From a virus, in the IMG/VR virus record IMGVR_UViG_3300035670_000035, positions 62,001-126,000 of that record: a DNA stretch of 64,000 bases, one strand, 5' to 3'. Shown in pieces: positions 16,330 through 55,491 of the stretch (within the stretch, counting starts at the first letter, position 1; every line of letters begins with the position of its first letter). The translations under genes were made by a program, and so were the position numbers. The notes under the pieces were generated by a model. The model was not told where the DNA came from. It saw only the letters and a list, made by a program, of their open reading frames with translations, and did no database searches.

Positions 16330-18246
16330 ATGAGGAAAAAGAAACTAGTATATCAATCTGATTTTAGTTTAGCAAAAACTGGCTTTGGAAGAGCTGCCAA
16401 AGCCTTATTGTCTTATTTGTATAAAACTGGGAAATATGATATAACACATTATTCTTGTGGATTAACTTATAATCATCCAGAATTTGAAAGAACCCCTTGG
16501 AAAACAGTTGGTTCCTTACCAAATAACCCTCAAGAGATACAAGAGTTAAATAAAGATCCTAATGTTGCTAGATTAGCGAGCTACGGAGCTCATTATCTAG
16601 ATAAGGTAATACAAGAAGAAAAACCAGACGTATATATTGCAGTTCAAGATATATGGGGCATTGATTTCGCAATCGATAAAAAATGGTTTGATAAAATTAC
16701 ATCTGTACTATGGACCACATTAGATTCTTTACCGATTTTACCAACCGCAGTAGAAAAAGCTCCAAAGATTAAAAATTATTGGATATGGAGTGATTTCGCT
16801 ACAAAAGCACTGCATGATCTTGGACATAAACATGTTGAAACTGTACACGGACCTATTGAAGTTAAAAATTTCTATAGATTAGAAAACTCTAAAAGAGAAG
16901 AGCTTAGAAAAAGAAATAATATTCCATTAGATGCTTTTATTGTTGGATTTGTTTTTAGAAATCAACTTAGAAAAAGCGTTCCTAACTTATTAGAAGGATA
17001 TGCTTTATGGAAAAGATCTAATCCACAAATCAAAAATACATATCTATTATTCCATACACATTGGTCAGAGGGATGGAATATACATAGACTTGCAAAAGAA
17101 TATGGAATTGATTTGAAGGAAATATTAACAACTTATGTTTGTAAAACATGTGGAAATTATGAAGTAAAACCTTTTTATGGTCAAGATATTGATTGTAGAT
17201 TCTGTGGCACTAAAAAATCTCAAACCACAACAAATGTTGGATTAGGGGTTACAGAAGAACAACTAAATGAAGTATACAATATCATGGATGTTTATTGTCA
17301 TCCATTTACTAGTGGTGGACAAGAAATACCAATACAAGAAGCGAAACTAACAGAATTAATTACTCTAGTTACTAACTATAGTTGTGGTGAAGAAATGTGC
17401 CAAGATGAGGCGGCTACATTACCATTAGAATGGTCAGAATATCGCGAGCATGGTACGGAATTTATTAAAGCTTCAACAAAACCAAATTCAATTGCTAAAC
17501 AATTAAATAAAGTATATAATCTGCCAGTTCAAAAAAGAAGAGAAATGGGTAAGAAAGCCAGAGAATGGACTATCAATAATTTTTCTGTTGAAGTTGTAGG
17601 TAAATATATAGAGAATTTTATAGATAATGCACCATTTACAGATTTTGATTTCTCTACAAAGGAAGAGGAAAGAGAGCCTTTTCATAAAATTCCAGAAATA
17701 AAAGATGACGCAGAATGGATAACGTATATGTATCATAATATACTTAAAATGCGTCATGTGGATAATAATGATGATGGTCATAAATATTGGATGAACGAAA
17801 TATCAAAAGGAGTAAAACGACAAGATATTGAAAAATATTTTAGACAAGTTGCTACTCAAGAAAATCAAAAAAATAAAAAAATTACTTTTGAGGAATTGTT
17901 AGGCGAAGGTAATCCAAAAGATAGAATTCTATATGTAATGCCAGAATCTATAGGTGATATTTATATGTCCACAAGTTTATTTGCTTCTATAAAGAAGCAA
18001 TATCCAGATAAAAAATTATACGTCGCAACGAATCCTCAATATTTTACAATATTGGAGGGTAACCCTTTTGTAGATAAAGTCATACAATATACCCCTCAAA
18101 TGGATCAACTATTATGGTTGGAAGGAGTTGGAGATCATAAAGGTTTTTTTGAAATTGCATTTTTACCGCACATAGGCACGCAAAGGATGTTTAATTATCA
18201 ACATAATGGGAAAACTAAAATAGCCTTTGATTTAAAAGATGAATGA
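16330..18246 (+). CDS. GT4 glycosyltransferase fused to GT9 N-terminal half
   Basis: A 638-residue protein in two parts. Residues 1-410 form a GT-B glycosyltransferase of the GT4 type: an N-terminal DFSLAKTGFGRAAKAL, the domain-2 start VGFVFRNQLRKSV near 206, and HPFTSGGQEIPIQEAKL near 324, with the E-x7-E-like donor-binding motif. A zinc-ribbon insert (C271, C274, C289, C292) lies in the second domain. From about residue 530, RILYVMPESIGDIYMSTSL and PDKKLYVATNPQYF look like the N-terminal half of a GT9 heptosyltransferase, which stops abruptly at the gene end. The matching C-terminal half begins at 18884. It overlaps the next gene by eight bases. Acceptor unknown. Confidence 0.72.
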   Translation: MRKKKLVYQSDFSLAKTGFGRAAKALLSYLYKTGKYDITHYSCGLTYNHPEFERTPWKTVGSLPNNPQEIQELNKDPNVARLASYGAHYLDKVIQEEKPDVYIAVQDIWGIDFAIDKKWFDKITSVLWTTLDSLPILPTAVEKAPKIKNYWIWSDFATKALHDLGHKHVETVHGPIEVKNFYRLENSKREELRKRNNIPLDAFIVGFVFRNQLRKSVPNLLEGYALWKRSNPQIKNTYLLFHTHWSEGWNIHRLAKEYGIDLKEILTTYVCKTCGNYEVKPFYGQDIDCRFCGTKKSQTTTNVGLGVTEEQLNEVYNIMDVYCHPFTSGGQEIPIQEAKLTELITLVTNYSCGEEMCQDEAATLPLEWSEYREHGTEFIKASTKPNSIAKQLNKVYNLPVQKRREMGKKAREWTINNFSVEVVGKYIENFIDNAPFTDFDFSTKEEEREPFHKIPEIKDDAEWITYMYHNILKMRHVDNNDDGHKYWMNEISKGVKRQDIEKYFRQVATQENQKNKKITFEELLGEGNPKDRILYVMPESIGDIYMSTSLFASIKKQYPDKKLYVATNPQYFTILEGNPFVDKVIQYTPQMDQLLWLEGVGDHKGFFEIAFLPHIGTQRMFNYQHNGKTKIAFDLKDE

Positions 18247-33074: not shown

Positions 33075-35549
33075 CTAATAATTATTTATATTTAAACCTG
33101 TATAGAATTTATACTCTTTTCCAAGGTTATATATCTTCCATTCAAGATTTATTAAATTATTTATAGGTTTAATATTTTTTATTGAAATGTTTTTAGTATA
33201 TCTTGATGAGTAGCCATCTAATTTATAGATATCTGTATATAGTGGCGAGGAATAATTATAAAATTTATATATATCATATGTAGGAGAACAATTAAGATTT
33301 TTTATTGACAAAGAAAGTTCTAAATTTAAATTATTTAAATTATTAATATATCCAGTAGTTATAGATAAAGATTGCTGTATTCCGCAACAATCTCTACAAT
33401 TTAGTCCAGTATCACAAATACAATAATTAGTAATATTTGATGTAGATATTCCAAAATAATCTATATAATTATCCCATGGAGCTGATAATAAATATGCAGA
33501 ACCTTTTGTAGGATTACCAACTATCATGGTATTTCCATCTCTATTTAAAGCTATACTTTCACCAAAAAAATCTCCAGAAATTTGATTTTCATCATTTATT
33601 TTTAAATATTTTTGCCATCCTGGATAAATAGATGGGCATGTAGGAGGATTTATTGGCCAATATCCATAAAAAATACCTCCACTATATCCAAAGCCTGTTA
33701 CTGTTCCATCTTTAAGAACTACCATAGAATAACCGCATCCAGCAGATATTCCCGTAATTTTTCCAGAAATGCCAGTTGGGAAATTTAATTGTCCATAAGT
33801 ATTATCTCCATAACCAGTTACAGATCCATCATTTAAAAGAAAAAGAGTATTAACACAACCCAAACTCATTTTAACTATTTTACCAGAAATACCAGTTGAT
33901 ATATTAAATTGGTTAGAAGAATCGTATCCTATTCCAGTAGCCCATCCACCGCTAATAAGAAAAAGAGAGCTCCTCTCTGTCGCATCAATCCCAGTAACAT
34001 ATCCTTGAATTGATTGTGGAATAGATATTCGATCAAATTGATTACTTCCCCAACCAGAAACTGTTCCATTTTTAAGAAGTGCAAGTGCACTATATCCACC
34101 AAATGCTATTCCAGTTACATTTCCTTGAACATTAGCTGGAATTTTTGTTAAATCAAAAGTATCGCGCCAATCGTCACCCCATCCAGTAACTCTTCCGTCT
34201 TTTAAAAGAACCATATTGGTATCTATAGCAGAGATTATATCAACTACATTATTTCTAACAAAACCAGTAACGCCAGTTGAAATACTAGCTTTAGAAAATT
34301 GGCTACTTTGACCAAGACCCCATATATTTCCATCTTTTGTTAAAATAAATGAATGGTCATCTGCGATTGTTACTTTTTTAACATTTCCTTGAATTATATC
34401 TTCATCTATATATTCGCCTGTAATTTTTCCATCTGGTTCATTAAGATTTCCAAAAGCAACAATACTATCATCTTTTCTCAGCGCAAATGTAAGAACTTTA
34501 TTTGAGCTAGTATCTTTTAGGGGAAAAACATCTTTATAACATTTTTGTTTATCTTCTTGGACAAGTGAATTTAACTCTAAATATCCATGTATTGTTCCAG
34601 TTCGATCTGAAGAAGAAGCAAAAAATAAATTACCACTATTATTGATAGCCACAGACGTACCAAAATTAGTTGTATTTCCAGTAAATCTAATAAAAGGAAA
34701 GCTATATTTTTTATCTCTAAACCAAAAATTAGAATCTTTATCGTATTCAAATAAATAAACTCTACCAGAATATATATCATTAGAAGAATATCCATATTTA
34801 TTTGCTCCTATTAGGATACTTTGTGCATCATCTGTAACGCTAATACTTTTTCCAAATCCTTGATCTTCATTTTCAAAGTCGAATTTGTTATTGTCTGGAT
34901 TTTTAATCCTTCCTAATAAATTCCAATTTCCAGTTTCTGAGTATACAAAGATTTCTCCATTTCCATTATAATTTGGTGCAGCAATAAATACATAATTTCC
35001 ACTATTTATAGATACTTTTGTTCCATATTCCATACCCTCACTTGTACCTGAAAAAGTTTTATGTTTAACCCAAGTATCTCCTGCTTTTATGTAAAGATTA
35101 GCAAAACCACTTCCAAGTACTCCTTGATATGAACCAACAATTAATTTATTACCAGAATTGTTTAATTTTAAATCCCATCCAAGATAATCTTCTGCATTGT
35201 CTCCAATAATTTTTTGTACTTGATACCAGTTTTCATCTTTTCCAGTATAAATATATACTGCGCCCCTAGCATTTTCTTCAAGTGGAGCGGACACAGCTAA
35301 AATATCTCCTTTATTATTTATATCAATAGAATAACCAAAATTAACAATTGAATCTGATTCTAGTTCAATTTGTTGAATTTTTTTCCAAGAATTCCATTCT
35401 CCTTCATATTGTTTATATACATAAACCTTACCTTTAAGACTTTCTTGTGGGGCAGATATAGCAAAGATATCTCCACTATTTATAGCTACAGATTTTCCAT
35501 AATAAGAATAAGCAGATAGGTAAGTTTCATTTATATTTAAAAATTTCAT
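33075..35549 (-). CDS. FG-GAP and RCC1-like double-propeller adhesin
   Basis: About 824 residues. The N-terminal 345 residues contain FG-GAP-type repeats (e.g. NNKGDILAVSAPLEEN, NNSGNKLIVGSYQG). From about 345 to 625 they give way to six or seven RCC1-like blades of the type V-T-G-I-x-A-G...ALLKNGTVSGWGSN, VTGYGDNTYGQLN. FG-GAP repeats then resume (SIALNRDGNTMIVGNP). The C-terminal 150 residues carry Cys pairs (CICDTGLNCRDCCG). The RCC1 propeller thus appears inserted between FG-GAP blades. The frame can begin with GTG at 35570, but the ATG at 35549 has AAGGAG seven bases upstream and gives the ATGA overlap with the previous gene, so I prefer it. Confidence 0.72.
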   Translation of the reverse strand: MKFLNINETYLSAYSYYGKSVAINSGDIFAISAPQESLKGKVYVYKQYEGEWNSWKKIQQIELESDSIVNFGYSIDINNKGDILAVSAPLEENARGAVYIYTGKDENWYQVQKIIGDNAEDYLGWDLKLNNSGNKLIVGSYQGVLGSGFANLYIKAGDTWVKHKTFSGTSEGMEYGTKVSINSGNYVFIAAPNYNGNGEIFVYSETGNWNLLGRIKNPDNNKFDFENEDQGFGKSISVTDDAQSILIGANKYGYSSNDIYSGRVYLFEYDKDSNFWFRDKKYSFPFIRFTGNTTNFGTSVAINNSGNLFFASSSDRTGTIHGYLELNSLVQEDKQKCYKDVFPLKDTSSNKVLTFALRKDDSIVAFGNLNEPDGKITGEYIDEDIIQGNVKKVTIADDHSFILTKDGNIWGLGQSSQFSKASISTGVTGFVRNNVVDIISAIDTNMVLLKDGRVTGWGDDWRDTFDLTKIPANVQGNVTGIAFGGYSALALLKNGTVSGWGSNQFDRISIPQSIQGYVTGIDATERSSLFLISGGWATGIGYDSSNQFNISTGISGKIVKMSLGCVNTLFLLNDGSVTGYGDNTYGQLNFPTGISGKITGISAGCGYSMVVLKDGTVTGFGYSGGIFYGYWPINPPTCPSIYPGWQKYLKINDENQISGDFFGESIALNRDGNTMIVGNPTKGSAYLLSAPWDNYIDYFGISTSNITNYCICDTGLNCRDCCGIQQSLSITTGYINNLNNLNLELSLSIKNLNCSPTYDIYKFYNYSSPLYTDIYKLDGYSSRYTKNISIKNIKPINNLINLEWKIYNLGKEYKFYTGLNINNY
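33759..33797 (-). repeat. 39-base exact repeat, copy 1 (RCC1 blade)
   Basis: A 39-base stretch encoding part of an RCC1 blade (QLNFPTGISGK) is identical to 37289-37327 in the adjacent adhesin gene. Exact DNA identity, in blades whose neighbouring codons differ, points to a recent duplication or gene conversion between the two genes. Confidence 0.8.
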
Positions 35550-38056
35550 AAGGAATCTCCTTGTTGACACACACCAGAATCTCCACTAATAAAGCTTCTT
35601 GTGTAAAAATTGACTCCAGAAACAAATCCATTTATTGATGCAAACCATTTTGTTCCAGTTGTTGATGTATTACAATTCGGAACAACAAGAATACCTAAAG
35701 GAAACATTCCACTTTTAAATACTAAATTATTGGTTGCTTTAAATAAATTCCCAAATTTTTCCCAGTTATATGGAATTGAATTAGGAGGGTTATCTCCATT
35801 TGTTCCTATGCATGTAGTATCAAATAGCGTTAAACCGCTACCATTTAAATTATTTACAAAATTATCTATCGAATTAGATGAATTAATAGAAGCGCAATCA
35901 AATCTATTATTACAACCAGATGACCAAACTATTAATCTATCTTTTAGATTATGACTTACAAAATACGTTTCTAAATTAATATTATCATTATTATTTAAAT
36001 TAGTTGGATTTTCACCACAAGTTAAATTATTGTTTTGGGGAGTACTAGAGCAAACGTAATTTGGACAAAATCCACAATTTTCTACATATTTAATATAATC
36101 AATTATTAAAGTCTCTCCATTATTACAAGTTGGTGCCGCTGGACAACAATGAATAGGTACTGAAATAGATGGACTTGAAGATAATGCAACAGATGGACAA
36201 AATGGTATTTTAGAAAGTTTATAAGAAGCATTTAAAGCGCTATTTCCAACAATAGAAATATCATTATCTCCAAAAAATCCATTTCCAATTTGAGCTGCTT
36301 TTGCATAAAAAGTTTTAAGATCTTTTTCGTTATATAAAAATTTAGATTTATCAATAGAGTAATTTAACTCTTTATCTAAGTAAACGAAATTAAATGTTAA
36401 ATTTTCAGAACTTCTATAAGAAGCGATTTTATTTAAAAATGTTGAATATTTTATTTCAATTGGCGGGGCATATAAAGGGTCAATTTCAGCACAAGGTTCG
36501 GCATCAGATTCAATATATGGAAAATTATTTGTTATTATGTTTACAATTTTAGTTTTACTTGCGTTCCAAGATAGATTTTGTATTGCATAATCTAGAGCAT
36601 CATTTATTGCGATACCTTCTTTTATTTTTTGATATGGTTCTAAAGTTTTTATACCACTAAAGAAAATCCCAGTATTATTTGTAAAATCATGTCCTGTTAT
36701 AGTATAAATATCATCACTAAAATAAATAGTTGCTATTTGATTTAATCCAGAATTGGATCTTATTAATGTATCTAAAAGAATTCTGCTATTGCTTTTAAAT
36801 AAAGCTAATCCAGATTTATTACTATAAGAAATATCAATTAAATTAGCAACTTGAACTCCAGCATTACAATAGTATGGCATTGTGGAATTATCATTATAAA
36901 TTGTTCGAATTTTAGTTTTATAATTACCTGTATCAAAAATTCCTGTATACGTTGATATTATTCCAGCAGAGTAAGGAGCATAATTAACTTCAAATATTGG
37001 CAAATAACCAACACCTAAACCGCTCTTATAAATTAAAAGTTTATGTTTACTATTATATAATGGAGTAAATCCATCTTCTCCTTTTAAATTAAATTGAAAA
37101 TTACTTAGATTTTGGTCGCACCCATCTGTTGGTGCATCACCATAAACTACGAAAACACTACTACTACTAGTAGTAGTAGTAGGAACCATGCCGTATACTG
37201 CGCCTAAACTATTATCTCCATAAGCTACAATAGATCCATCTGTAAGAAGAATTAAATTATGAGTATAACCAGCAGAAATTTTTGCAACTTTTCCAGAAAT
37301 GCCAGTTGGGAAATTTAATTGTCCATAGCTATTGTCTCCCCAGCCAGTTACCCAATTTCCATTTCCAGAAAGCATAGCAAGATTGTGGTATTGTCCCGCG
37401 GATATATCTATAACTTTTCCAGAAATACTAGCTGGTACATTTAATTGTCCAACATTATTACGTCCCCAACCAGTTACCCAATTTCCATTATTTCCACTAA
37501 CAAGAGCAATGCTATGATCTCCACCTGCGGATATGCCTATAACTTTTCCATTAATAGCAGATGGTACATTTAATTGTCCGTAAGTATTAGATCCAAAACC
37601 ACTAGCTACTCCGCCACTATTAAGAGTTAAACCATGATTATAACTAGCTGAAACTTTTTTGAATCCAGTAACTCCACTGAAAGATATTTTTTGAAAATCA
37701 AAAAAGGAGCCCCAACCAGTAATAATTCCGCTCGTTTTTAAAACAACATAACTATTTGATGCAGAATTAGAAAAATCTTCTACATTATATTGTATAGAAT
37801 TTGGTATGTTTGATTGACCATACCAATTTCTTCCCCAGCCCGTAATTCTTCCATCTTTAAATAAAGCAAGAGTATGAAAAGGACCAGCATCTACACCAGA
37901 TATATTCCCAGAAGTAGAAAGTGGTATATTAATTTGCCCATCCTCATTATATCCCCAACCAGTTAATCTACCATTTTTTAATAATGCTAAACTAAATCCG
38001 GAACCAGCATATATTCCAGTAACATTTCCAGATGTAGCGATAATAGCGTTAATCAT
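35546..38056 (-). CDS. Seven-bladed RCC1 propeller adhesin with vWA-like domain
   Basis: An 836-residue adhesin. Residues 10-290 contain seven RCC1-like blades with cores GWGYNEDGQ, GWGRNWYGQ, GWGSFFDFQ, GFGSNTYGQ, GWGRNNVGQ, GWGDNSYGQ and AYGDNSLGA, a full propeller by count. A Thr4-Ser4 linker at about 293-300 leads to a middle domain. Residues 403-520 look like a von Willebrand factor A domain: the MIDAS-type D408-x-S410-x-S412 (NLIDISYSN), an IYFSDD strand, GIAINDALDYAI helix and IVNIITNN strand. Metal-dependent ligand binding is possible. The C-terminal 200 residues are Cys-rich (NCGFCPNYVC). It starts after a TAAAGGTAAAAGG leader. The stop overlaps the next gene by ATGA. Confidence 0.72.
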   Translation of the reverse strand: MINAIIATSGNVTGIYAGSGFSLALLKNGRLTGWGYNEDGQINIPLSTSGNISGVDAGPFHTLALFKDGRITGWGRNWYGQSNIPNSIQYNVEDFSNSASNSYVVLKTSGIITGWGSFFDFQKISFSGVTGFKKVSASYNHGLTLNSGGVASGFGSNTYGQLNVPSAINGKVIGISAGGDHSIALVSGNNGNWVTGWGRNNVGQLNVPASISGKVIDISAGQYHNLAMLSGNGNWVTGWGDNSYGQLNFPTGISGKVAKISAGYTHNLILLTDGSIVAYGDNSLGAVYGMVPTTTTSSSSVFVVYGDAPTDGCDQNLSNFQFNLKGEDGFTPLYNSKHKLLIYKSGLGVGYLPIFEVNYAPYSAGIISTYTGIFDTGNYKTKIRTIYNDNSTMPYYCNAGVQVANLIDISYSNKSGLALFKSNSRILLDTLIRSNSGLNQIATIYFSDDIYTITGHDFTNNTGIFFSGIKTLEPYQKIKEGIAINDALDYAIQNLSWNASKTKIVNIITNNFPYIESDAEPCAEIDPLYAPPIEIKYSTFLNKIASYRSSENLTFNFVYLDKELNYSIDKSKFLYNEKDLKTFYAKAAQIGNGFFGDNDISIVGNSALNASYKLSKIPFCPSVALSSSPSISVPIHCCPAAPTCNNGETLIIDYIKYVENCGFCPNYVCSSTPQNNNLTCGENPTNLNNNDNINLETYFVSHNLKDRLIVWSSGCNNRFDCASINSSNSIDNFVNNLNGSGLTLFDTTCIGTNGDNPPNSIPYNWEKFGNLFKATNNLVFKSGMFPLGILVVPNCNTSTTGTKWFASINGFVSGVNFYTRSFISGDSGVCQQGDSL
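35550..35562 (-). promoter_or_regulatory. Shine-Dalgarno inside a short self-complementary element
   Basis: Minus strand AAGGAGATTCCTT immediately before the ATG at 35549; AAGGA pairs with TCCTT across a three-base loop. The strong AAGGAG could be masked in the mRNA and opened by ribosomes finishing the upstream gene, a coupling device. Confidence 0.4.
37157..37180. repeat. 24-base perfect palindrome encoding Thr4-Ser4
   Basis: ACT/AGT triplets on either side of a central CTAG make a perfect 24-base inverted repeat. On the coding strand it gives four Thr then four Ser, the linker between the RCC1 propeller and the next domain. Such palindromes are prone to slippage and cruciform formation. 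Confidence 0.8.
37289..37327 (-). repeat. 39-base exact repeat, copy 2 (RCC1 blade)
   Basis: Second copy of the identical 39-base segment found at 33759-33797 in the downstream adhesin gene; it falls in the last full blade (QLNFPTGISGK) of this propeller. Confidence 0.8.
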
Positions 38057-43200: not shown

Positions 43201-43222
43201 TTTTACTAGGAGTGCTACTCAT
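40202..43222 (-). CDS. Large tail hub/baseplate-like protein with an EF-hand loop
   Basis: A 1,006-residue protein. The N-terminal 125 residues (VQSITLDNDVNYAGGRIYHCNF, VKVKIGDLDLGD, ILEISFIDPSFMLDK) look like a tail hub or baseplate domain of the kind that sits on the tube. A run of nine or ten Ser at 138-147 separates it from a calcium-type EF-hand loop, DENKDNMISFDE at 171-182, within a cysteine cluster (C170, C189, C192, C195, C204). The middle contains QEREITEFQKLANMNYHTLKRQM and helical segments. It lies between the fibre gene and the LamG/RCC1 gene and overlaps the latter by eight bases. Tail-tip hub is the best guess; a lytic domain is not obvious. Confidence 0.55.
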   Translation of the reverse strand: MSSTPSKIKVQSITLDNDVNYAGGRIYHCNFSPNFSERPSEVQINVISANGQYQTPTINFKTTVKVKIGDLDLGDMYPYKYKNRYSSQGNILEISFIDPSFMLDKIFIGLNGKHAWTNGFGKEIEERNKNTFIESLGSSSSSSSSSSAISPNISQKITDNFWIIGRQFHPCDENKDNMISFDEAFNVDPCDPCPSCPEDKYENRCKELSYTTIFEIGYSFKDFVDAFKTYKPRQGSTEIDIEIPKAIESDINKYQKFYRDHFGPLREVLTSWANEFGLNWFYDLKDKKIKFIDLSAQEIQVPVGNIVNEYKRKSTLISYEHEVTSERTSQRGAISWYERGGERKSANCSKATTVVLSALYGADYLGNRTRTALNGKDINSNTDVVGAILRAYNPLLRDLFWLRNIYDMKSSKDMIQYITDFNLFFSGSNRNAQRTGEQYVVPDTKVIPEYGDMRILAVVDCNLSQEDREITEFQKLANMNYHTLKRQMNSMDREKLLINSGFFVVAYIDEFALEKRYEMEDELYDFLGRFYVRESLFRLCGMTGNEEFIKNNTNIESADGSAQIYSKKDGIGSHPLSRYKYYKSGYLGCIVGPENLSNFDPAKPDATSAPTSTQGFDLQTSKVNNQDVVSLMDTPNSYTDSAGAAGSMFSLKKSNEIIPRFEQTAIILDREAKWIPEVQQFQENYNELISDKLGNLEWKLFGNNGVPPNATWMTSAYGGRTGFIGDGKSAKIKIFIVYKGDFKVTPSLNEDFATTKNHPTDKTAAVTKKLLKRVGGKYSSQTPIGLINNKCHEIEIISTGLALPRIYTPPHTLVPKNTKALIEENTLKSTANKGDKARPCDSALKTETFRVPAYRVYVSQAFDQPVTLPKIQTGVYSNMTCGDNIRNFDVVYTKLTDDDFKSFTGSKGYGCIPNLNYLSSINNAYTGNVFSNTDPDDSLSLEIKGLPDIKDYSTEILRGLESLSIEITEQGISTNLQYGTKIVKGISSDLLKFQNSRRFDRNVKGI

Positions 43223-46200
43223 TGAAATAATTGTCCGTATTATTATATATAATTACATCTGTTTTGTCATAAAAATTTGGATTATAAAATTGATCATTTT
43301 CAGATATTTCATAATAACTATCAGATCTTAATTTAATACCATTTAGCCAAATTAATTGGCTATTTTTACTAAATCTAGGTAAGTCAAAGCTATACATAGA
43401 ACCTGTATATCTATCATATTCTAGTAATAAATTAAAAGCATGAATTATTCCTGTAACAGGTATATTTCCTGTAATATATTCAATATTTGGAGCATTAAAG
43501 TTGTAGTGATATCCACTTATTAATTTTTGTCCATTTAAATATAAAAAGTCTTTATTATTTAAAGATAAGCCAGTCTCTCCAGTATAATTAAATATTGCTT
43601 CACCAGTTTTTATAAAATCAGCTTCAATATTATCAAAAAAATCATATAAACTGATAGGCGAGCCTAATGTATCATTTAATAAATAGTTTAAACCACTAAT
43701 TTGAGCAACGCCATTTAAATTTACTGAATAATTTGCTCCAGTATTTCTAAATCTAAAACTATTAGAAGCCTTGCTCATTAATAGCGAATTATTTAAACTA
43801 ATATCTAATCCACTATTTATTTTAAATAAATATATTTCAAGAATATCATCATTATCAATTAATTGATTAATTAGCAATAGATCTATTCCTAAAGAATTTA
43901 AATAATCTAAATTTTTATTTAATGTATAATTTTTAGTATAATTTAAAATTGTAGTTTTATTTGCTATGTATCCGTTTTGTTTATTAAATATATTTTTAGA
44001 TTCTGAACTATGATACCCTGAATCTAAATAGATAGTATCAACCATATTTACACGAGAGCCATCATTAACATATACAAATTCATAAATATAATTTCCAGTT
44101 TTTGATGCGTCATAGATTCCAGAAGAGAATCCAGTTTGATAAGTTCCATTACTAATTAATTTTTGAGATGTAAATGATGAAGTTGTTATATCTATTCCAG
44201 TTAATACATCGCCAGTAATAACTCCTATGATTCCAGAGACAAGATGCATCGGAAATCCTGTTCCACAAAACTGAGGAATATCTTTATACCAACCAGTATT
44301 GTATCCAGTTATTCCAGAGAATAATACTTGATTTTCAAAACCAGAGATTTGACTTACGATAACAGTAGTTGTTTCTGTTATTGTTATTGGTCTTTCGACT
44401 TCTATATTATATATAAAATGCGCATTACCAGAGGCTAGATTTTTTACTTCCTGACCAGTTATATATTCTGCATAAGTTCCATATTCTGAAGTATTATATT
44501 TTTTAATATCATTTAAAGAATCTCCATATCCCGCGTTGCCATAATAAGTTAGATCTTCATTTTCAAAAAGTATTGAAGAAGAATAATATCCAGCATCTAT
44601 TTGAATTGCACCAGTTAAGCCAATTGGATCTGTGGCTTGTCCGCCACCATCTTCACCCCATCCTGTTATTGAATTATCTGTATTTAATATAGCTATTGTA
44701 TGTAAGTTACCCGCTGCTATATCTAATACTCCAGTTAGGTTATTTCCGTTTCTTGGATATGCTCCTACTCCTTCGCCACCCCAACCAGTAATTGTATTAT
44801 CTATTCTTAAAGCAATATTATGATAATCTCCAACAGAAATTTTTGATACCCCTGTAAGTTCTGATATAAGAGTCTCTTCAAATGCTCCAGTAAATCTTCC
44901 GTCAGTATCACTATTATAAATATAATCTAATTGAACATATTTTGGTTTTACATTAATTTCACCATAATAACCATTATCTTCTACTCCACTCCAATTAGTT
45001 AATGGTAATAATGAAGAAGTTCCATTACCATTTCTGTATCCAGTTATTCCAGAATAAACAATCCAATTAATTCCACTTCTAAATATTCTCCATTTGTTTA
45101 TATCGTTAATATATCCAGAAGTAGAGTTATAGCTATATAAAAGATTTATTCCTGTATCTATACTATTTTCAACTACTATTTGATATGGAAGATTTAAGTC
45201 GTTTGATAATGGTGGAGGAGTAACGTTTCCTGTTAAATTAATAGTATCAGATGCTCCACTATAATTTAAAATCCATCCAGTAGTATTGTTATATAATGAA
45301 AGATTAAAATTTTCAAAATCATTGATATATTTATACGCTGGTTTACTATTGTAATCTCCAGTATAATCCAATATTAATCCTAATAAATATGTATAATTTT
45401 CATATATTCCTGTAATTCTTAATTTTAATGGATAAGATAAATTATCTCTATCATTAATAGAAGCCACTTGATTATAACTATTATCTCCCCAACTTAATAA
45501 TGTTCCATCTGTTTTTAAAAACAACGCATGATTGAGACCTAATTCAATAGCGGAAATATTTGATAATTGACCCAGAGGAGAAGTGCTGTAATTTCCAGTA
45601 AAGTAACCAGAAGAATTATCATAATCTATTGTGCCAAATATTTTTCCAAAACTATTTTTACCCCATCCAGTAACAGTATTATCATCTTTAAGAGCTAAAC
45701 AAGCGCTTCCTTTACATGATATGTCTATTATGTTTGTTAATTTTCCAACTGGAGATCCAGTCCAATGCCCCGCGTATCCTGTAGCTCCATAAAGAGTTCC
45801 TTCATCATTATTTCCCCAACCAGTAATTGTATTATCTTTTAATAAAGCTAATACTGTTAAATCATTTAAAGTAGTTGTGTCTCTGAATATTTCTAATTTT
45901 TCAATTTGCCCAGTTAGAAGTAAAAGATTTTGTGGATTAGGTAAGTTATAACCAGTTACCCCAGTAAGATCAAGGCTATAATTACTTCCAGTTATGCTTC
46001 CAGAGATAACTCCAGCTTGATCTAAGAATTGATTACTAAAACATCCAGTTATATCAGAATAGCTATCAAAAATATGAGTAATATTACTTGGATAGTTTAT
46101 ATAACCATAGAATTGATTGTTTAAAGAAAATGTATAATATGAATTTAAGTTATAAACAAATTGATCTATTACATTATTTAATTGAAAATCAGTAATATTT

Positions 46201-46850
46201 TTATTTATTAATATAAAGTCTTTTAAATAACCACTATAGTTAGGAAAATTAGAAAATTTACCACTACTTAAAATTATAGATCCTGTTACATTTGGTGTTA
46301 AATTATTATCTATTTGAAAAGCTTCTGTATAAAAATCATCATATCCAGCATTATAATAACTTATAAATATATTGCCTCCATATCCTCTAACAGATAATAT
46401 GCCTTTTGTATCTAAATTATAATTTGTAGTTAAATATTTTAATTCATTATTAGTATCATAGTATTCTATAAGAATATTATTATAATTACTTACGCAAATA
46501 TTAAATCCATAATATTTGCCATTAGATCCAGTATTTAAATTAGAAAATAAAACACAAGGACTATTATTTGTCTTTTCATAGGAATATATAAAAGTAAATT
46601 GTTCTGTGCTGAAATTAGATAAATTTATATCTATTCTGCTATCTCCAGTAAAATATAAATAACCAGTTTGGGCATTTAAATTATCAACTAGATTTGATCC
46701 GCTATAGAAACCAGTATATTGCACATATGGACTATTATTGTATGTATAATAATTTCCACTAAAGTTAAGAGGATCAAAAAAGTAATGTATAATATAATTA
46801 TTAGTTTCTACGCTCAGTGGATTTAAGAAATATTTTGTATCGTTTTTCAT
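43215..46850 (-). CDS. LamG-like and RCC1-like adhesin, propeller with insert
   Basis: A 1,211-residue adhesin. Residues 60-235 match a concanavalin/LamG-like lectin sandwich (FSTEQFTFIYSYEKT, YGFNICVSNYNNILIEYYD, FSNFPNYSGYLKDFILI). Residues 325-475 contain three RCC1-like blades (ITGWGNNDEG, VTGWGKNSFG, LLSWGDNSYN), and a further three occur at about 670-775 (ITGWGGEGVG, ITGWGEDGGG). The roughly 190 residues between them form a separate domain inserted into the propeller. The C-terminal 400 residues are beta-rich with T-G turns, ending in a possible capping domain. Host-surface or self-glycan binding is likely. It overlaps its neighbours by ATGA and eight bases. Confidence 0.7.
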   Translation of the reverse strand: MKNDTKYFLNPLSVETNNYIIHYFFDPLNFSGNYYTYNNSPYVQYTGFYSGSNLVDNLNAQTGYLYFTGDSRIDINLSNFSTEQFTFIYSYEKTNNSPCVLFSNLNTGSNGKYYGFNICVSNYNNILIEYYDTNNELKYLTTNYNLDTKGILSVRGYGGNIFISYYNAGYDDFYTEAFQIDNNLTPNVTGSIILSSGKFSNFPNYSGYLKDFILINKNITDFQLNNVIDQFVYNLNSYYTFSLNNQFYGYINYPSNITHIFDSYSDITGCFSNQFLDQAGVISGSITGSNYSLDLTGVTGYNLPNPQNLLLLTGQIEKLEIFRDTTTLNDLTVLALLKDNTITGWGNNDEGTLYGATGYAGHWTGSPVGKLTNIIDISCKGSACLALKDDNTVTGWGKNSFGKIFGTIDYDNSSGYFTGNYSTSPLGQLSNISAIELGLNHALFLKTDGTLLSWGDNSYNQVASINDRDNLSYPLKLRITGIYENYTYLLGLILDYTGDYNSKPAYKYINDFENFNLSLYNNTTGWILNYSGASDTINLTGNVTPPPLSNDLNLPYQIVVENSIDTGINLLYSYNSTSGYINDINKWRIFRSGINWIVYSGITGYRNGNGTSSLLPLTNWSGVEDNGYYGEINVKPKYVQLDYIYNSDTDGRFTGAFEETLISELTGVSKISVGDYHNIALRIDNTITGWGGEGVGAYPRNGNNLTGVLDIAAGNLHTIAILNTDNSITGWGEDGGGQATDPIGLTGAIQIDAGYYSSSILFENEDLTYYGNAGYGDSLNDIKKYNTSEYGTYAEYITGQEVKNLASGNAHFIYNIEVERPITITETTTVIVSQISGFENQVLFSGITGYNTGWYKDIPQFCGTGFPMHLVSGIIGVITGDVLTGIDITTSSFTSQKLISNGTYQTGFSSGIYDASKTGNYIYEFVYVNDGSRVNMVDTIYLDSGYHSSESKNIFNKQNGYIANKTTILNYTKNYTLNKNLDYLNSLGIDLLLINQLIDNDDILEIYLFKINSGLDISLNNSLLMSKASNSFRFRNTGANYSVNLNGVAQISGLNYLLNDTLGSPISLYDFFDNIEADFIKTGEAIFNYTGETGLSLNNKDFLYLNGQKLISGYHYNFNAPNIEYITGNIPVTGIIHAFNLLLEYDRYTGSMYSFDLPRFSKNSQLIWLNGIKLRSDSYYEISENDQFYNPNFYDKTDVIIYNNTDNYFNE

Positions 46851-50060: not shown

Positions 50061-50067
50061 ATTACGC
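50061..50067 (-). promoter_or_regulatory. GCGTAAT variant of the late motif
   Basis: Minus-strand GCGTAAT, five bases before the ATG at 50055; its TAA is the stop of the tape measure gene. One-base variant of GTGTAAT with no AAAGG leader, so the assignment is weaker than for the full sites. Confidence 0.25.
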
Positions 50068-53000
50068 TGTTAAATTCAAATTTTGAGGTGGATTAACAAC
50101 GCCCTTTTCCCTTGCTTTAGCCTTTTCATCCGCAATTTTAACAATTGCTTCACCGAATTTTTTAACTTCTGCTTCAATCATTTTTTGTAGTTCTGCTTTA
50201 TCCATTGCAGCTTCTTGCGCTATATTAATGTTTGGAGATACAGAGATGGTATTATTTATTTCAAATGGTTTTTCTTTTTCTGTTGCTTTAGCTTTTTCTG
50301 TTGCTGTTTCTTCTGATTTGGCAAGCATTTCTGCTTTAGAAAACTCTTCTGGTCTTGAAGTATTTTCAAATTGTTGGGCAAATTGCTGTTGAGATTCTTT
50401 TAATGTTGCTAACGCTACTTCAAGCCCTTTTGCTTGAGAAGCTTGCTCTTCTTCGGTAAGAGCACTAGCTCCACCTCCGCCTAAAAATCCAGGTAAATTT
50501 TGAGATAATGATGTAAATAAATCTGGCATTGTATCGTAAAGTTTATCACCTAAAACGCTTGCTACATTTTCTCCTTTATCTCCAACTGGAACTTGACTAA
50601 TTCCATAACCAACAGCTGCTCCACCAGCAAATGCACCAGCACCTAAAGCAGTTGTTCCTGCAACTCCTCCAGGTAATGCTAATGCCCCTCTTACTCCTAT
50701 ATTCATTCCATTTGCTGCAGCTGCTGTATTTAATGCTCCTCTAGCAACTCCAAATCCTCTTCCTATACCTCCAACAACATTTTTTCCTAAATTAGCTGCG
50801 CCTCCAACAACATTTTTTCCTAAATTAGCTGCGCCTCCAACAACATTTTTTCCTAAATTAATTGCACCTTTTCCAGCTGCAGATACTCCTTTTGCACCAA
50901 GTATTCCACCGCCTACCGCCGCTATTGTGCTTCCAATTCCACCACCAGCAAGTAATGTATTTATTATGCTACTTGCATCCATACTTGGAGCAGGAGTAGG
51001 TTTTACTACATCTGGAGTAAAGTCAACCTTAGTTTCTTTAGGAACATCTTCGGCTCTTTTTCTCATAGCTTCTATCTCTGCGGCTTTTTCTTGGGCTTTC
51101 TTTTGATCTTCTGTGAGTTCAGGAGCTTTAGATCCTAAGTCGTTTAACATAACTCTACCTTCTCCTACTTTCTCCTCTAATTCTTTCATTGTCTGTGTAC
51201 CAGCATCACCAAAATCATAACCATTTTTTCCTCCTGCTAAAATATCCTGTGCAGGTTTAAATCCTAAAGCACCCGCTTGTTCCATCTGTTGTCTTTGTAC
51301 ATTAGCTATATATCTTGCTCCTCTTTCTTTATATTCTTCTGGAGCTTCAAGTCCAGCTTGTCGTGCTAATAATACAGCTTGCCCAGCTAATCTATCTAGC
51401 TCTTCTTCTTTTCCTGGTCCTGCCCCCATAGTTTCAACCATTTTTATTCTTGACAATGCCGCGTTAAGCTTATCCATTGGTTGAGCTACAAATTCTTCAT
51501 CAAAAATTCCTTCTCCTTGTACGCTACTTATACCTTTATAACCTGGAGCTTTAGGCTGTACTGCTGCTGCTTTCGCTCTTGCTTCGGCAGCTTTAAGCTC
51601 AGTTTGAGTTAATTTCATGGTTGCTGCTACCATTTTTTGTGCTGCTTCTGGATTTTTAGCTAATTCACTTTTTAACTGAGCAATAGATTCTGTAGATGCA
51701 CCTGCCATTACTGCTCCTGCTTCAAGCACAGCAAAAAATTCGGAAGCAGAACCTGATGATTGAGATAAAGCGTCTGCAACAGTTAGAAAATCATCTGGAT
51801 TAAGAGAGAGAATCGGTGCCATAACAGATTTGGCAGCGGAATCAATTGATTCTTTGCTTTGAAATGTTGTTTTCATTTCTTTATTCATTAAACCTTGGCC
51901 ATAATCTACTAATGGTCCTATTCCTGTACCAGTTAAAATTCTACCAAATTGACCCATAGCACCCATATCAGCTCTAGCTTTTCCTTGTTCGGCTGTAACT
52001 GTTTGTCTTAAAGCAATTTGGCTCTGGGCTACTGATTGTTTACGTTGCTCCTCTGAGATAGAGCCCATTACTCCTTCTGGAGTACTTAAATTTTTCATTA
52101 TTTTATCTCGTAGTTCTGGGCCTAAATCAGCTATGCCATCTAAAATGCTTGTTCTAAATTTTGCAATAGCTTCTGGATCTGGTTCTGCTTTCTCTAATTC
52201 TTCTGCATAAGCATTTAATGTTGGATTTAAATTAGATACTACAGTTTCTAATTTAGAAGTAGCAGCTCTTGAAGATTCCATAGCTTTATTTAAGCTATCC
52301 ATCTGCTTGGTAAGAGGTTTATCTGCATTTGCAGAAAGTCCAGCTACACCTTGAATTGCTAACATTGTTCCTGCCGCAGCAATTCCTTTTTTACCACCAC
52401 CAAAAGTACCAATAGCTGTACTAACAGAACTTAGTGCAGTTAAACTTTGATTTAACCCTTGAATTACTTTACTATTTGTATCCCCAAATTGAAGTATTGT
52501 TCCTTGTAATACAGATATGCCAAGACCAAGTGCTATTAATTTGCTTTGATTATCGTTTACTTTCTTGGATAAATTTTTACTAGAATCAGCAGTTTTACTT
52601 AATCCTCTAGCGGCTTCATCTGCTGCTTTTGCTACGGCAGTAAAATCTCCAGATTTACCTGTACCTACTGACATTTTTCCACCTGGATTTCTAAATGGTA
52701 TTCCTTTTGGCATAGGGGCAAAATTTGGTATAACTCCACTATAACGATTTACTCCTTGCTGTAATCCAGCTGGTTCATCTCGCGTATTATAAACTCCAAG
52801 ACCAAGAGGGTTATCTCTAGACATTAAACTAGAGCTAGTACCAACTCGAATTAAATTAGGATTAACGCCAGCAGCTTGCTCGCGAGCAATAGCGTCTTGT
52901 AATGCGGCAAAATTTGGAATATAACCAAAAGATTTAGTTCTTCTTGCGGAGCTTATCTTTTGTGCTTTTCCTAGCTGTATTCCTTTTTCTGCAGCTTTTC

Positions 53001-55491
53001 TAGCGGCAAGTTCTTTCTCTTTTAATTGTCTCTGTTTTAGTTCTTTTGTATAATTTTCACCTAACATTTCCTTTGTTTTTTGACCTATATACCCTAAATT
53101 TAATATTTTTTGAGCTACACTATCTCTTTGGTCTCCTTTTGCATTTACTTTAGCTTCAAATGTAGCAGCTCTATCCGCCCCCATATTAAATAATTTTCTT
53201 AATTCAGGACTTGGAGCAGCAAAATCTATTGGAGCATTTTGACCTCTTCCTTCATTTAGAGTGCTAGTTGCAAGTCCAACAGCTGTTTCAAATACTGCTC
53301 CAGCAATACTACCAAATGATCCAGCATTAGATAGTTGATTAATACTTGCGATCTTTGGTATTTGTCCACCACCTTGAAATAATTTTTTAGCAAAATCATT
53401 TGTAAATGTTACAATTTTATCTCCAAGTTGTTTTATCAAATCTATGTCTGCTGGTTTCCTTATGTTCGCTGGGTTATATCCAGACATTGGAAATCCTATT
53501 TTAATTTTATAATCTCCATATTTAGCATAACCAAAAGCATCTACAGCTTTATTAGTTTTATATGGAAAAATCATTCCAACTTTATTTTGTCTTCCAGTAT
53601 CAATAATCTTTGTATATTTTTTTCTTTCTTTATCTACAAAATTAGGAACATATCCACGATAAGCATAAGGATCAAATCCTACTTGTTTTCTAAATGCGCT
53701 TCTATAATTTTCTCCAGCAAGACTATTTTGTGGTGGCATAATAGCTGGACCATCTGCACCAGCAAATTGTACAACACTCTCTGCTGTATTATAATACATT
53801 CCTCCTATCTTTTTGACTGCACCAGGAGTATAACCTCCAGCGTATGCACCCATTTTTTCTTGCATAGTTGGCGATACAAAATTTGGTATATAACCACCAG
53901 CTTTTGTTTTTACTGTTGGAGTGGCTATTCTTGCTGCGGCTGGAGCAACTCTAGCTGAAATTGTAGCGCCTATAGCTCTTGCCGTATTTTGCTGCTCAAT
54001 AATCCTTAGTATTTGATTTTCTATTTGTAATAGTGAAGACTCTTTAGAAATAATAGCTTGTATAAGCGAAGGATTTTGTGCTAAGATTGCATTTACTCTT
54101 GCTTGTGCTGATGCAATTTTATCAGCTTGACTACTAATTCCAATTAAACTTTTTAACGCTTCTGCACTAAATTTAGTTAATCCACCAAATATCTTAATAA
54201 ATGCTGCACCAACCACAGCAAGTCCTGGACCACTTAAATAACCACCTATTCCTTTTAAAATACCTGTGGCAATTTTTGTTCCTGTACCTTGAAGCTCTTC
54301 TGGTTTATTGAATTCTTCTAAAATAGAATTTAATCCACCAAGACCAATTTTTAAACTTGGAGCAATAGTTAATTCGCCAATTCTTGCAGCAGCTTCTTGT
54401 AAGTTAACAAAAGTTTTATTCGTTAATGCTGAAAGAGTTTGATTTAAAGCTTGATTTCTTTGAATTGCTTGATCTGCGGCAGTTCTAGATGCATTTAAAG
54501 CTCCACTATAGACACTATATTCTTTACTTAAATCTGATAGTGCTGCTCTTAAAATATTGATCTGGAAAACACCGCCAACAGTTTCTGCAACAGAAGCTCT
54601 TTGAGAATCACTTAATTGATAAAATACATCTGATAAATTTTTTAGAATTTGTATAGCTGGTAAAGTGTTACCTTGTAAATCTCTAACTGCAATTCCTACG
54701 GCTTCTAATTCATCTAACGTATCTGTTCGTTGTAAACGTGTAAAAATCGTCTTAAATGAGTTACCAATTACTGCTCCACCTCTAGCGGTTGTTTGTTGGG
54801 CGGCTGTAACAATAGCTATTAATTGATCAAAATCAACTCCTACGTCTTGAGCTGTACTACCAACTCGACTAATAGCCTCTGCAAGATCCGCTGTGCTTAC
54901 AGCAAAAGCCGCGTCAACTGTTGCAAGTTTATTAATAATCTGACTAGAGGTTAATCCTGCTCTTGCAAATGAGTTTACTGCCGCAGTTAATGTTTCTACG
55001 CTTCTTGCTGCATCTAGACCAGAAAGACGACTTAATATAAGTGCGTCATTTGTTCTTTTTAATGTTTCTTCAATACCAAGACCTTGACGAGCAAATTCAG
55101 TTGCAGCTTTTGCTACTTGATCAAATCCTTGACCAGTATTTTTTGCTATACCAAATAATTCTTTACCAAATTTGCCAAGGTCTTTTGTTGAAGCATTTAA
55201 AACAACATTAATATCTGTAAGGCTTTTTTCTACTTCTAATGTGGCCTTTACTACTTCCCCAAATGCTCTTTGTATTGCGTAAACTGCTCCAGCAGATGCT
55301 CCGAATGCTAAAACACGAGCATTAGATGCTTCTAATGATTTTTCAAATTCAGATACTTTACCAGTAATTCTTCCTAAAGGCTGAGATAAGCTATCCTTTA
55401 GATTTAAATTAACGCTTCTAGACGATATTTTATTTAACTTAGACTCTAACGGTCTCAGATCTCCATCTACCGATAAAATAATATCGCTCAT
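50062..55491 (-). CDS. Tail tape-measure protein with embedded nuclease-like domain
   Basis: An 1,809-residue tape measure. Residues 1-400 are a TP901-type core: long helices such as DQVAKAATEFARQGLGIEET, the SVETLTAAVNSFARAGLTSSQ block and the TARGGAVIGNSFKTIFTRLQ block. Motifs GYIPNF, GYVPNF, GYIPNF and GVIPNF occur at residues 533, 613, 856 and 919. Between the second and third lies a domain with VFETAV (E735), PIDF (D756) and FEAKVNA (E779, K781), arranged like a PD-(D/E)XK nuclease site. The remainder is helical, with tandem Gly-rich NLGKNVVGGA repeats near 1570 and an Ala/Gly-rich hydrophobic segment likely to insert in the membrane. By the usual 0.15 nm per residue the tail would be about 270 nm. 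Confidence 0.85.
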   Translation of the reverse strand: MSDIILSVDGDLRPLESKLNKISSRSVNLNLKDSLSQPLGRITGKVSEFEKSLEASNARVLAFGASAGAVYAIQRAFGEVVKATLEVEKSLTDINVVLNASTKDLGKFGKELFGIAKNTGQGFDQVAKAATEFARQGLGIEETLKRTNDALILSRLSGLDAARSVETLTAAVNSFARAGLTSSQIINKLATVDAAFAVSTADLAEAISRVGSTAQDVGVDFDQLIAIVTAAQQTTARGGAVIGNSFKTIFTRLQRTDTLDELEAVGIAVRDLQGNTLPAIQILKNLSDVFYQLSDSQRASVAETVGGVFQINILRAALSDLSKEYSVYSGALNASRTAADQAIQRNQALNQTLSALTNKTFVNLQEAAARIGELTIAPSLKIGLGGLNSILEEFNKPEELQGTGTKIATGILKGIGGYLSGPGLAVVGAAFIKIFGGLTKFSAEALKSLIGISSQADKIASAQARVNAILAQNPSLIQAIISKESSLLQIENQILRIIEQQNTARAIGATISARVAPAAARIATPTVKTKAGGYIPNFVSPTMQEKMGAYAGGYTPGAVKKIGGMYYNTAESVVQFAGADGPAIMPPQNSLAGENYRSAFRKQVGFDPYAYRGYVPNFVDKERKKYTKIIDTGRQNKVGMIFPYKTNKAVDAFGYAKYGDYKIKIGFPMSGYNPANIRKPADIDLIKQLGDKIVTFTNDFAKKLFQGGGQIPKIASINQLSNAGSFGSIAGAVFETAVGLATSTLNEGRGQNAPIDFAAPSPELRKLFNMGADRAATFEAKVNAKGDQRDSVAQKILNLGYIGQKTKEMLGENYTKELKQRQLKEKELAARKAAEKGIQLGKAQKISSARRTKSFGYIPNFAALQDAIAREQAAGVNPNLIRVGTSSSLMSRDNPLGLGVYNTRDEPAGLQQGVNRYSGVIPNFAPMPKGIPFRNPGGKMSVGTGKSGDFTAVAKAADEAARGLSKTADSSKNLSKKVNDNQSKLIALGLGISVLQGTILQFGDTNSKVIQGLNQSLTALSSVSTAIGTFGGGKKGIAAAGTMLAIQGVAGLSANADKPLTKQMDSLNKAMESSRAATSKLETVVSNLNPTLNAYAEELEKAEPDPEAIAKFRTSILDGIADLGPELRDKIMKNLSTPEGVMGSISEEQRKQSVAQSQIALRQTVTAEQGKARADMGAMGQFGRILTGTGIGPLVDYGQGLMNKEMKTTFQSKESIDSAAKSVMAPILSLNPDDFLTVADALSQSSGSASEFFAVLEAGAVMAGASTESIAQLKSELAKNPEAAQKMVAATMKLTQTELKAAEARAKAAAVQPKAPGYKGISSVQGEGIFDEEFVAQPMDKLNAALSRIKMVETMGAGPGKEEELDRLAGQAVLLARQAGLEAPEEYKERGARYIANVQRQQMEQAGALGFKPAQDILAGGKNGYDFGDAGTQTMKELEEKVGEGRVMLNDLGSKAPELTEDQKKAQEKAAEIEAMRKRAEDVPKETKVDFTPDVVKPTPAPSMDASSIINTLLAGGGIGSTIAAVGGGILGAKGVSAAGKGAINLGKNVVGGAANLGKNVVGGAANLGKNVVGGIGRGFGVARGALNTAAAANGMNIGVRGALALPGGVAGTTALGAGAFAGGAAVGYGISQVPVGDKGENVASVLGDKLYDTMPDLFTSLSQNLPGFLGGGGASALTEEEQASQAKGLEVALATLKESQQQFAQQFENTSRPEEFSKAEMLAKSEETATEKAKATEKEKPFEINNTISVSPNINIAQEAAMDKAELQKMIEAEVKKFGEAIVKIADEKAKAREKGVVNPPQNLNLTA
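50768..50866 (-). repeat. 33-base tandem repeat, three copies
   Basis: Three adjacent 33-base units; the first two are identical and the third differs only at its end. They encode an 11-residue Gly/Ala/Asn/Lys-rich motif (GAANLGKNVVG) in the C-terminal part of the tape measure. Copy-number change by slippage would alter the protein in steps of 11 residues. Confidence 0.85.

What the first reader, a model, noticed from the sequence alone, without database searches (positions are those of the whole stretch)
53092..53895. Nuclease-like domain inside the tape measure, flanked by GY(I/V)PNF motifs
Four GYIPNF/GYVPNF/GVIPNF motifs occur at residues 533, 613, 856 and 919. Between the second and third is a segment with E735 (VFETAV), D756 (PIDF) and E779-x-K781 (FEAK), the spacing of a PD-(D/E)XK active site. 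Tape measures pass through the tail into the host on injection, so an enzymatic cargo delivered with the genome is an attractive reading. The motifs may bracket swappable modules.
Basis: partly seen in the sequence, partly recalled or inferred. Interest (0 to 1): 0.82.

Follow-up and report, generated by a model that had tools for sequence, protein, structure and literature searches.

The report
Swappable nuclease-like cassette in tape measure
A phage's tail ruler protein, which goes ahead of the viral DNA into the bacterium, carries a module with the invariant metal-site residues of a DNA- or RNA-cutting enzyme, and related phages swap highly divergent versions of it at short GYxPNF borders, which suggests an enzyme delivered with the genome and caught in an arms race.

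Summary
The 1809-aa ORF at 50062-55491 (-) is a tape measure protein (TMP); GxxPNF motifs sit at residues 533, 613, 856 and 919, and E735, D756, E779 and K781 are as stated. The motif marks a large, essentially uncultured TMP family. Segment 613-836 is a domain found in 43 of 44 near-full-length family members. Over 97 domains (about 18% column identity) the conserved polar positions are E735 (92 E, 5 D), D756 (95/97), D/E779 (97/97), K781 (96/97) and K/Q795 (96/97), plus G731. In 41 held-out domains, E735 and D756 are 41/41, D/E779 and K781 40/40. AlphaFold2 gives a confident alpha/beta model (pLDDT 90.6), but Foldseek and profile searches link it to no known nuclease, so PD-(D/E)XK membership is inferred from the site alone. 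The swappable-module idea is strongly supported: in 25 pairs of TMPs with >80% DNA identity upstream, identity stops at the motif (25/25 within 28 nt, mostly within 6) and resumes at the next (22/25 within 18 nt), while the domain falls to as low as 20-30% amino-acid identity and keeps its site. Other slots hold a staphylococcal nuclease, GNAT and P-loop modules. Delivery and catalysis are untested.

The parts
50062..55491 (-). Tape measure protein gene, 1809 aa
   Evidence: PHROG 4211 8e-54 and Pfam PhageMin_Tail 2.4e-28 on the N-terminal part
54319..55359 (-). TMP N-terminal conserved region, residues 45-391
   Evidence: PHROG match; 82-88% identical in close relatives L125-L129
53878..53895 (-). 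Motif 1 GYIPNF, residues 533-538
53656..53895 (-). Constant module between motifs 1 and 2, residues 533-612
   Evidence: 70-92% identical between the window TMP and its close relatives, while the next segment varies
53638..53655 (-). Motif 2 GYVPNF, residues 613-618; 5' border of the swapped cassette
   Evidence: identity ends at the equivalent motif in 25 of 25 locus pairs
52984..53655 (-). Nuclease-like domain as modelled, residues 613-836
   Evidence: AlphaFold2 with 65 homologues: pLDDT 90.6, pTM 0.84; 97 homologous domains
53287..53289 (-). E735, candidate metal-site residue in helix alpha1 (GxxFE)
   Evidence: 92 E + 5 D of 97; 41/41 held out
53224..53226 (-). D756, candidate metal-site residue
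   Evidence: 95/97; 41/41 held out
53149..53157 (-). E779-A-K781, the (D/E)xK motif on a beta strand
   Evidence: D/E779 97/97, K781 96/97; held out 40/40 and 40/40
53107..53109 (-). K795, conserved K/Q in the following helix
   Evidence: 76 K + 20 Q of 97; 36 K + 3 Q of 39 held out
52909..52926 (-). Motif 3 GYIPNF, residues 856-861; 3' border of the swapped cassette
   Evidence: identity resumes within 18 nt of the equivalent motif in 22 of 25 pairs
52738..52926 (-). Constant module B between motifs 3 and 4, residues 856-918 (NPxGLxVxNTRDEP signature)
   Evidence: signature in 93 of 117 family ORFs, after the domain in 83
52720..52737 (-). Motif 4 GVIPNF, residues 919-924
   Evidence: several pairs lose DNA identity again just after the equivalent motif

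Best explanation
The segment between the second and third GxxPNF motifs is an enzyme module with a PD-(D/E)XK-type metal site (E735 on a helix, D756, E779-x-K781 on a strand, K795 on the next helix), most likely a metal-dependent nuclease. It is built into the tape measure protein, so it would leave through the tail ahead of the genome and act in or at the membrane of the infected cell, on host, plasmid or rival-phage nucleic acid. GxxPNF motifs are protein-level linkers that separate constant parts of the TMP from exchangeable modules; recombination between related phages replaces the whole cassette from motif to motif, which keeps the site but changes nearly everything else, as in polymorphic toxin cassettes. 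Shown here: the motifs, the conservation, the confident alpha/beta model, the motif-to-motif exchange, the near-universal presence. Inferred: metal binding and nucleic-acid cleavage, delivery into the host, and selection by host inhibitors, defences or varying targets.
For: 97 homologous domains, converged with reversed decoys at E >= 0.1 in the final rounds; the most conserved polar positions are exactly E735, D756, (D/E)779, K781 and K/Q795; an independent MAFFT alignment of 65 sequences leaves only G731, D756 and K781 invariant and E735 nearly so. Held-out test: 41 domains under 60% identical to training (median best 39%) keep E735 and D756 41/41, D/E779 and K781 40/40, against a median column maximum of 0.24. 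Model pLDDT 90.6: E735 in helix 723-741, EAK on a strand at 777-780, K795 in helix 786-799. 43 of 44 near-full-length TMPs carry it. Exchange: L126/L127 have 100% identical residues on either side of motif 1 and 42-62% in the slot, and L125 combines a window-like backbone with an L126-like slot; 25 pairs break at the motifs; L025/L119 are 98% upstream, 26% in the domain, 93% downstream. A staphylococcal nuclease homologue (2e-9, above the Pfam cut-off) sits in a motif-bracketed slot of L100 and a GNAT domain in L055. Precedent: Tme of Streptomyces contractile injection systems is a TMP-related effector with a proven C-terminal endonuclease (PMC11126660).
Against: No significant match of the model to any PDB or viral structure; no Pfam, PHROG, NCBIfam, PADLOC or PDB profile match shared by members; hhalign against RecB-like PDDEXK_1 and Mrr_cat alignments not significant. 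After alpha1 the model has only a one-residue bridge at D756 and one short strand, with a helix between, plus a four-strand meander N-terminal to alpha1, so the classic alpha-beta-beta-beta-alpha-beta order is not seen. No coordinates were available to measure whether the residues converge. A folded 24-kDa domain may not fit a tail lumen without unfolding. Nothing here shows delivery or activity.
Confidence: 0.55

Rival explanations
1. The domain is an enzyme with a metal site but not a nuclease of the PD-(D/E)XK superfamily: another fold that arrived at an E, D, (D/E)xK, K set, acting on protein, nucleotide or lipid at the membrane.
For: Foldseek finds no restriction-endonuclease-like match for a confident model, and the strand order is unusual. 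Other slots in the family hold non-nuclease enzyme-like modules (GNAT, P-loop).
Against: The combination helix-E, D, (D/E)xK on a strand, then K/Q on the next helix is the listed signature of restriction-endonuclease-fold toxins (Tox-REase-1: E, D, ExK, Q; PMC3482391). PD-(D/E)XK families are known to escape standard sequence detection (PMC1913061 abstract).
Confidence: 0.25
2. The variable segment is structural, and its diversity reflects escape from defences that recognise the TMP at injection (such as SNIPE) rather than enzyme function.
For: SNIPE associates with TMPs during injection, and TMP mutations give escape (PMC13190303). Only TMP regions are exchanged in the pairs examined; no linked gene changes with them in L126/L127.
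Against: A purely structural segment does not explain near-invariance of four or five catalytic-type polar residues at 18% column identity, including held-out sequences. Escape may still drive the swapping of an enzyme.
Confidence: 0.13
3. The apparent swapping is fast point divergence or assembly chimerism, not recombination.
For: Tail proteins evolve fast; IMG/VR contigs are metagenome assemblies. A published survey could not confirm recent TMP mosaicism and warned about rate variation (PMC10684548).
Against: Breaks coincide with the motif within a few nt in 25 pairs from 20 loci; L125 has a slot 74-81% like L126 with a backbone 90% like the window. Chimeric assembly would not place joints at a protein motif with variable codons in many samples, nor keep one open frame.
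Confidence: 0.05

Closest known systems
Tme, tapemeasure-related effector of Streptomyces davawensis contractile injection system (PMC11126660)
   Same: TMP relative that carries a nuclease as delivered cargo
   Different: Nuclease is EndA-like (DRGH, H-N-N motifs), C-terminal, in a bacterial injection system; no GxxPNF brackets or allelic swapping reported in the passages read
Polyvalent proteins of phages and conjugative elements (PMC5512222)
   Same: Several different enzyme domains in one polypeptide, thought to enter with the DNA
   Different: Described for head, MuF and conjugation contexts; the paper does not contain the words 'tape measure'; here the chassis is the TMP, and one core domain is almost always present
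Polymorphic toxin systems, Tox-REase families (PMC3482391)
   Same: Constant carrier with exchangeable toxin cassettes; site E, D, ExK, Q
   Different: C-terminal toxin with a linked immunity gene; here the cassette is internal, bounded on both sides, and no linked co-swapped gene was seen
TMPs with peptidoglycan hydrolase domains (e.g. SPbeta YomI)
   Same: Enzyme domain inside a TMP
   Different: Acts on the cell wall; not a nuclease-like site, and no GxxPNF array was tested there

Membership tests
Phage tape measure protein | TMP-family N-terminal homology in one of the largest tail-gene ORFs | tested here: met
   PHROG 4211 8e-54, Pfam PhageMin_Tail; longest ORF of the window
PD-(D/E)XK nuclease superfamily | Conserved E (alpha1), D, (D/E)xK and K/Q in the following helix | tested here: met
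   97 domains plus 41 held out; secondary structure placement
PD-(D/E)XK nuclease superfamily | Core fold alpha-beta-beta-beta-alpha-beta | tested here: inconclusive
   Confident alpha/beta model, but few strands after alpha1 and no significant Foldseek match; coordinates not available
PD-(D/E)XK nuclease superfamily | Detectable homology to a known member family | tested here: not met
   No Pfam/NCBIfam/PADLOC/PDB profile match; hhalign to PDDEXK_1 and Mrr_cat not significant
PD-(D/E)XK nuclease superfamily | Metal-dependent nucleic acid cleavage | not testable with these tools
   Needs purified protein
Polyvalent / injected multi-enzyme phage protein | Several unrelated enzyme domains on one phage-delivered chassis | tested here: met
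   Across the family: SNase 2e-9, GNAT 6.8e-5, weak AAA P-loop, and 48 clusters of segments without the domain; the window protein itself shows only one such domain
Polyvalent / injected multi-enzyme phage protein | Injected into the host with the DNA | not testable with these tools
   Inferred from the TMP role
Polymorphic toxin system | Constant carrier, divergent exchangeable cassette | tested here: met
Polymorphic toxin system | Linked, co-varying immunity gene | tested here: not met
   L126/L127 flanks aligned on both sides apart from the slot, a second variable stretch in the TMP C-terminal part and divergent locus ends; no co-swapped neighbouring gene seen in the pairs inspected; small sample

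The most novel reading that the evidence does not exclude
A whole uncultured phage lineage uses the tape measure protein as a delivery chassis for an almost obligatory, motif-bracketed nuclease of an undescribed branch of the PD-(D/E)XK type, which is exchanged between phages like a polymorphic toxin cassette and is the first enzyme to enter the host, possibly with added modules (staphylococcal nuclease, acetyltransferase, P-loop kinase-like).
Probability: 0.4. Interest if true: 0.88.

Novelty: new variant of a known kind. Interest (0 to 1): 0.76.

Why it matters
Tape measure proteins are mostly treated as rulers and channel formers. A near-universal, fast-swapping enzyme module in them would mean that many environmental phages send an enzyme in before their DNA, would give a direct, testable case of recent TMP mosaicism (which a large survey suspected but could not confirm, PMC10684548), and would offer an explanation for TMP diversity besides defence evasion. 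The GxxPNF motif is a simple handle to find such phages and to list their cargo.

Tried and rejected
Single-domain search and AlphaFold2 with 3 sequences: pLDDT 39.5, no information. Domain searches of Pfam, PHROGs, PDB sequences and cultured phages: nothing relevant; the domain is missing from the INPHARED phages at tblastn sensitivity. Foldseek against PDB and BFVD: best E 0.36-0.44, GTPase-like noise, rejected. hhalign against PDDEXK_1 and Mrr_cat: E 0.27 and 0.79, similar to unrelated neighbour-gene controls (0.58-0.60), so not used as support. VRR_NUC gave too few members to build a profile. A domain query in bacterial genomes found nothing; the motif pattern found four multi-motif ORFs, three with the domain. 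Motif as a DNA-level recombination site: rejected as the main reading because all synonymous codons occur, although short homology at the motif may still help recombination. The + strand ORF 53428-53958 opposite the domain starts at TTG and has no support; taken as a shadow ORF.

Full report
What is there. The window is bases 62001-126000 of a 136-kb virus record. The ORF at 50062-55491 on the minus strand encodes 1809 aa; its N-terminal part matches tape measure proteins (PHROG 4211, 8e-54; Pfam PhageMin_Tail, 2.4e-28). The quoted interval 53092-53895 covers residues 533-800; the natural unit is residues 613-836.

The motif is a family mark. In a collection of 84,980 bacterial and archaeal genomes it gave 107 hits, four in multi-motif ORFs. 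All Gly and Pro codons and both Asn and Phe codons are used at the motif, so it is kept as a peptide. No cultured phage in the collection matched the domain or the motif region; matches to cultured phages are almost all to the generic TMP N-terminal part.

The domain. With the window sequence and five close relatives as seed, iterated profile searches converged on 97 domains in 92 ORFs, with reversed decoys no better than E = 0.1 from the third round on. In these, G731 is 97/97, E735 is 92 E and 5 D, D756 is 95/97, position 779 is D or E in 97/97, K781 is 96/97, and position 795 is K or Q in 96/97. A MAFFT alignment of 65 diverse sequences, mean column identity 18%, leaves only G731, D756 and K781 invariant, with E735 above 90%. 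A second scan with GFIPNFA gave new loci: 41 domains under 60% identical to any training domain (median best identity 39%) keep E735 and D756 in 41/41, D/E779 and K781 in 40/40 (one gap), K/Q795 in 39/39, while the median column's commonest residue reaches 24%. Detection by profile favours sequences that keep conserved columns, so these figures are slightly flattering, but the gap to the background is very large. 43 of 44 near-full-length TMPs with motifs carry the domain.

Structure. With the 65-sequence alignment AlphaFold2 gives pLDDT 90.6 and pTM 0.84 for residues 613-836. It has a four-strand meander, a helix, the helix with E735, a short bridge at D756, a helix, a short strand with E779-A-K781 and a helix with K795. 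Foldseek against PDB and viral models returned nothing significant, and profile comparisons with PDDEXK_1 and Mrr_cat alignments were no better than, or close to, controls. I therefore claim a PD-(D/E)XK-type site, not proven membership in the superfamily.

Swapping. Close relatives L126 and L127 are nearly identical in the 610 residues before motif 2 (96-100% in each bin) and 42-62% identical in the main part of the slot; the DNA falls from about 99% to about 50-60% just after motif 2 and recovers at motif 3. L125 has a backbone about 90% like the window TMP and a slot 74-81% like L126, so the slot has moved between backbones. Across the family, many pairs have over 85% identical upstream and downstream residues but 20-40% in the domain. 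Among 25 pairs from 20 loci with more than 80% upstream DNA identity and a detectable step, the 5' step falls within 28 nt of the motif's last base in all 25 (21 of 25 within 6 nt) and the 3' step within 18 nt of the next motif's first base in 22. These pairs are not all independent. The order motif, domain, motif, module B (NPxGLxVxNTRDEP) recurs. In several pairs identity is lost again just after the motif that follows module B.

Other modules. Segments of at least 92 aa without the domain fall in 48 similarity clusters (two of these are copies that do contain the domain and were missed by de-duplication). Firm hits: a staphylococcal nuclease homologue in L100 (2e-9) and a GNAT domain in L055 (6.8e-5), both above Pfam cut-offs; a P-loop module in 15 loci has only weak AAA scores. 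Most modules have no database match.

Mechanism. The best reading is an enzyme delivered with or ahead of the genome. TMP exit on infection is established for several siphophages, and TMPs reach the inner membrane (lambda TMP next to ManYZ, PMC13190303). What the enzyme acts on is unknown. The cassette's divergence suggests an opponent: a host inhibitor, a defence that senses the TMP, or a varying target such as rival phage or plasmid DNA. I found no linked gene exchanged together with the cassette, unlike the immunity genes of polymorphic toxins. Delivered nuclease on a TMP-like chassis has a tested precedent in Tme (PMC11126660); multi-enzyme injected proteins are known as polyvalent proteins, but that paper does not mention tape measures (PMC5512222). 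A survey of phage protein mosaicism suspected TMPs but could not confirm recent cases (PMC10684548); the pairs here look like such cases. A full-text search for GYIPNF found no paper.

Verdict. Observation confirmed; interpretation partly supported. The swappable, bracketed module is well established by sequence; the catalytic site is strongly supported; the fold class, activity and delivery remain to be tested.

Noticed in passing
window 43215-46850, 35546-38056, 33075-35570 (-): Three large tail-region proteins carry RCC1-type beta-propeller repeats (RCC1_2 down to 3.6e-38), and 25433-28381 has TIG and FG-GAP repeats: unusual eukaryote-like repeats in presumed tail or adhesion proteins.
   Followed up: partly
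L100:8760-9362:-: Staphylococcal nuclease homologue (Pfam SNase, 2e-9) between two GxxPNF motifs of another tape measure protein.
   Followed up: partly
L020, L021, L025, L031, L035, L070, L087, L090, L091, L093, L097, L104 and others: A P-loop module (GPAGSGKST, about 165 aa) precedes the nuclease-like domain in 15 loci; only weak AAA/clamp-loader scores.
   Followed up: partly
L039:2209-2739:-, L117:929-1549:-, L103:678-1352:-, L012:789-1886:+: Other bracketed segments look by eye like HAD (DxDxT), ADP-ribosyltransferase or metallopeptidase modules but have no Pfam match; by-eye readings only.
   Followed up: no
TMP residues about 1400-1700 (window about 50392-51294): A second highly variable stretch in the C-terminal part of the TMP; in several pairs DNA identity stops again just after the motif following module B.
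   Followed up: partly
window 16330-18246 (+): Glycosyltransferase-like gene (PHROG 2170, 7.9e-14); could bear on modification of the phage's own DNA or its surface, not examined.
   Followed up: no
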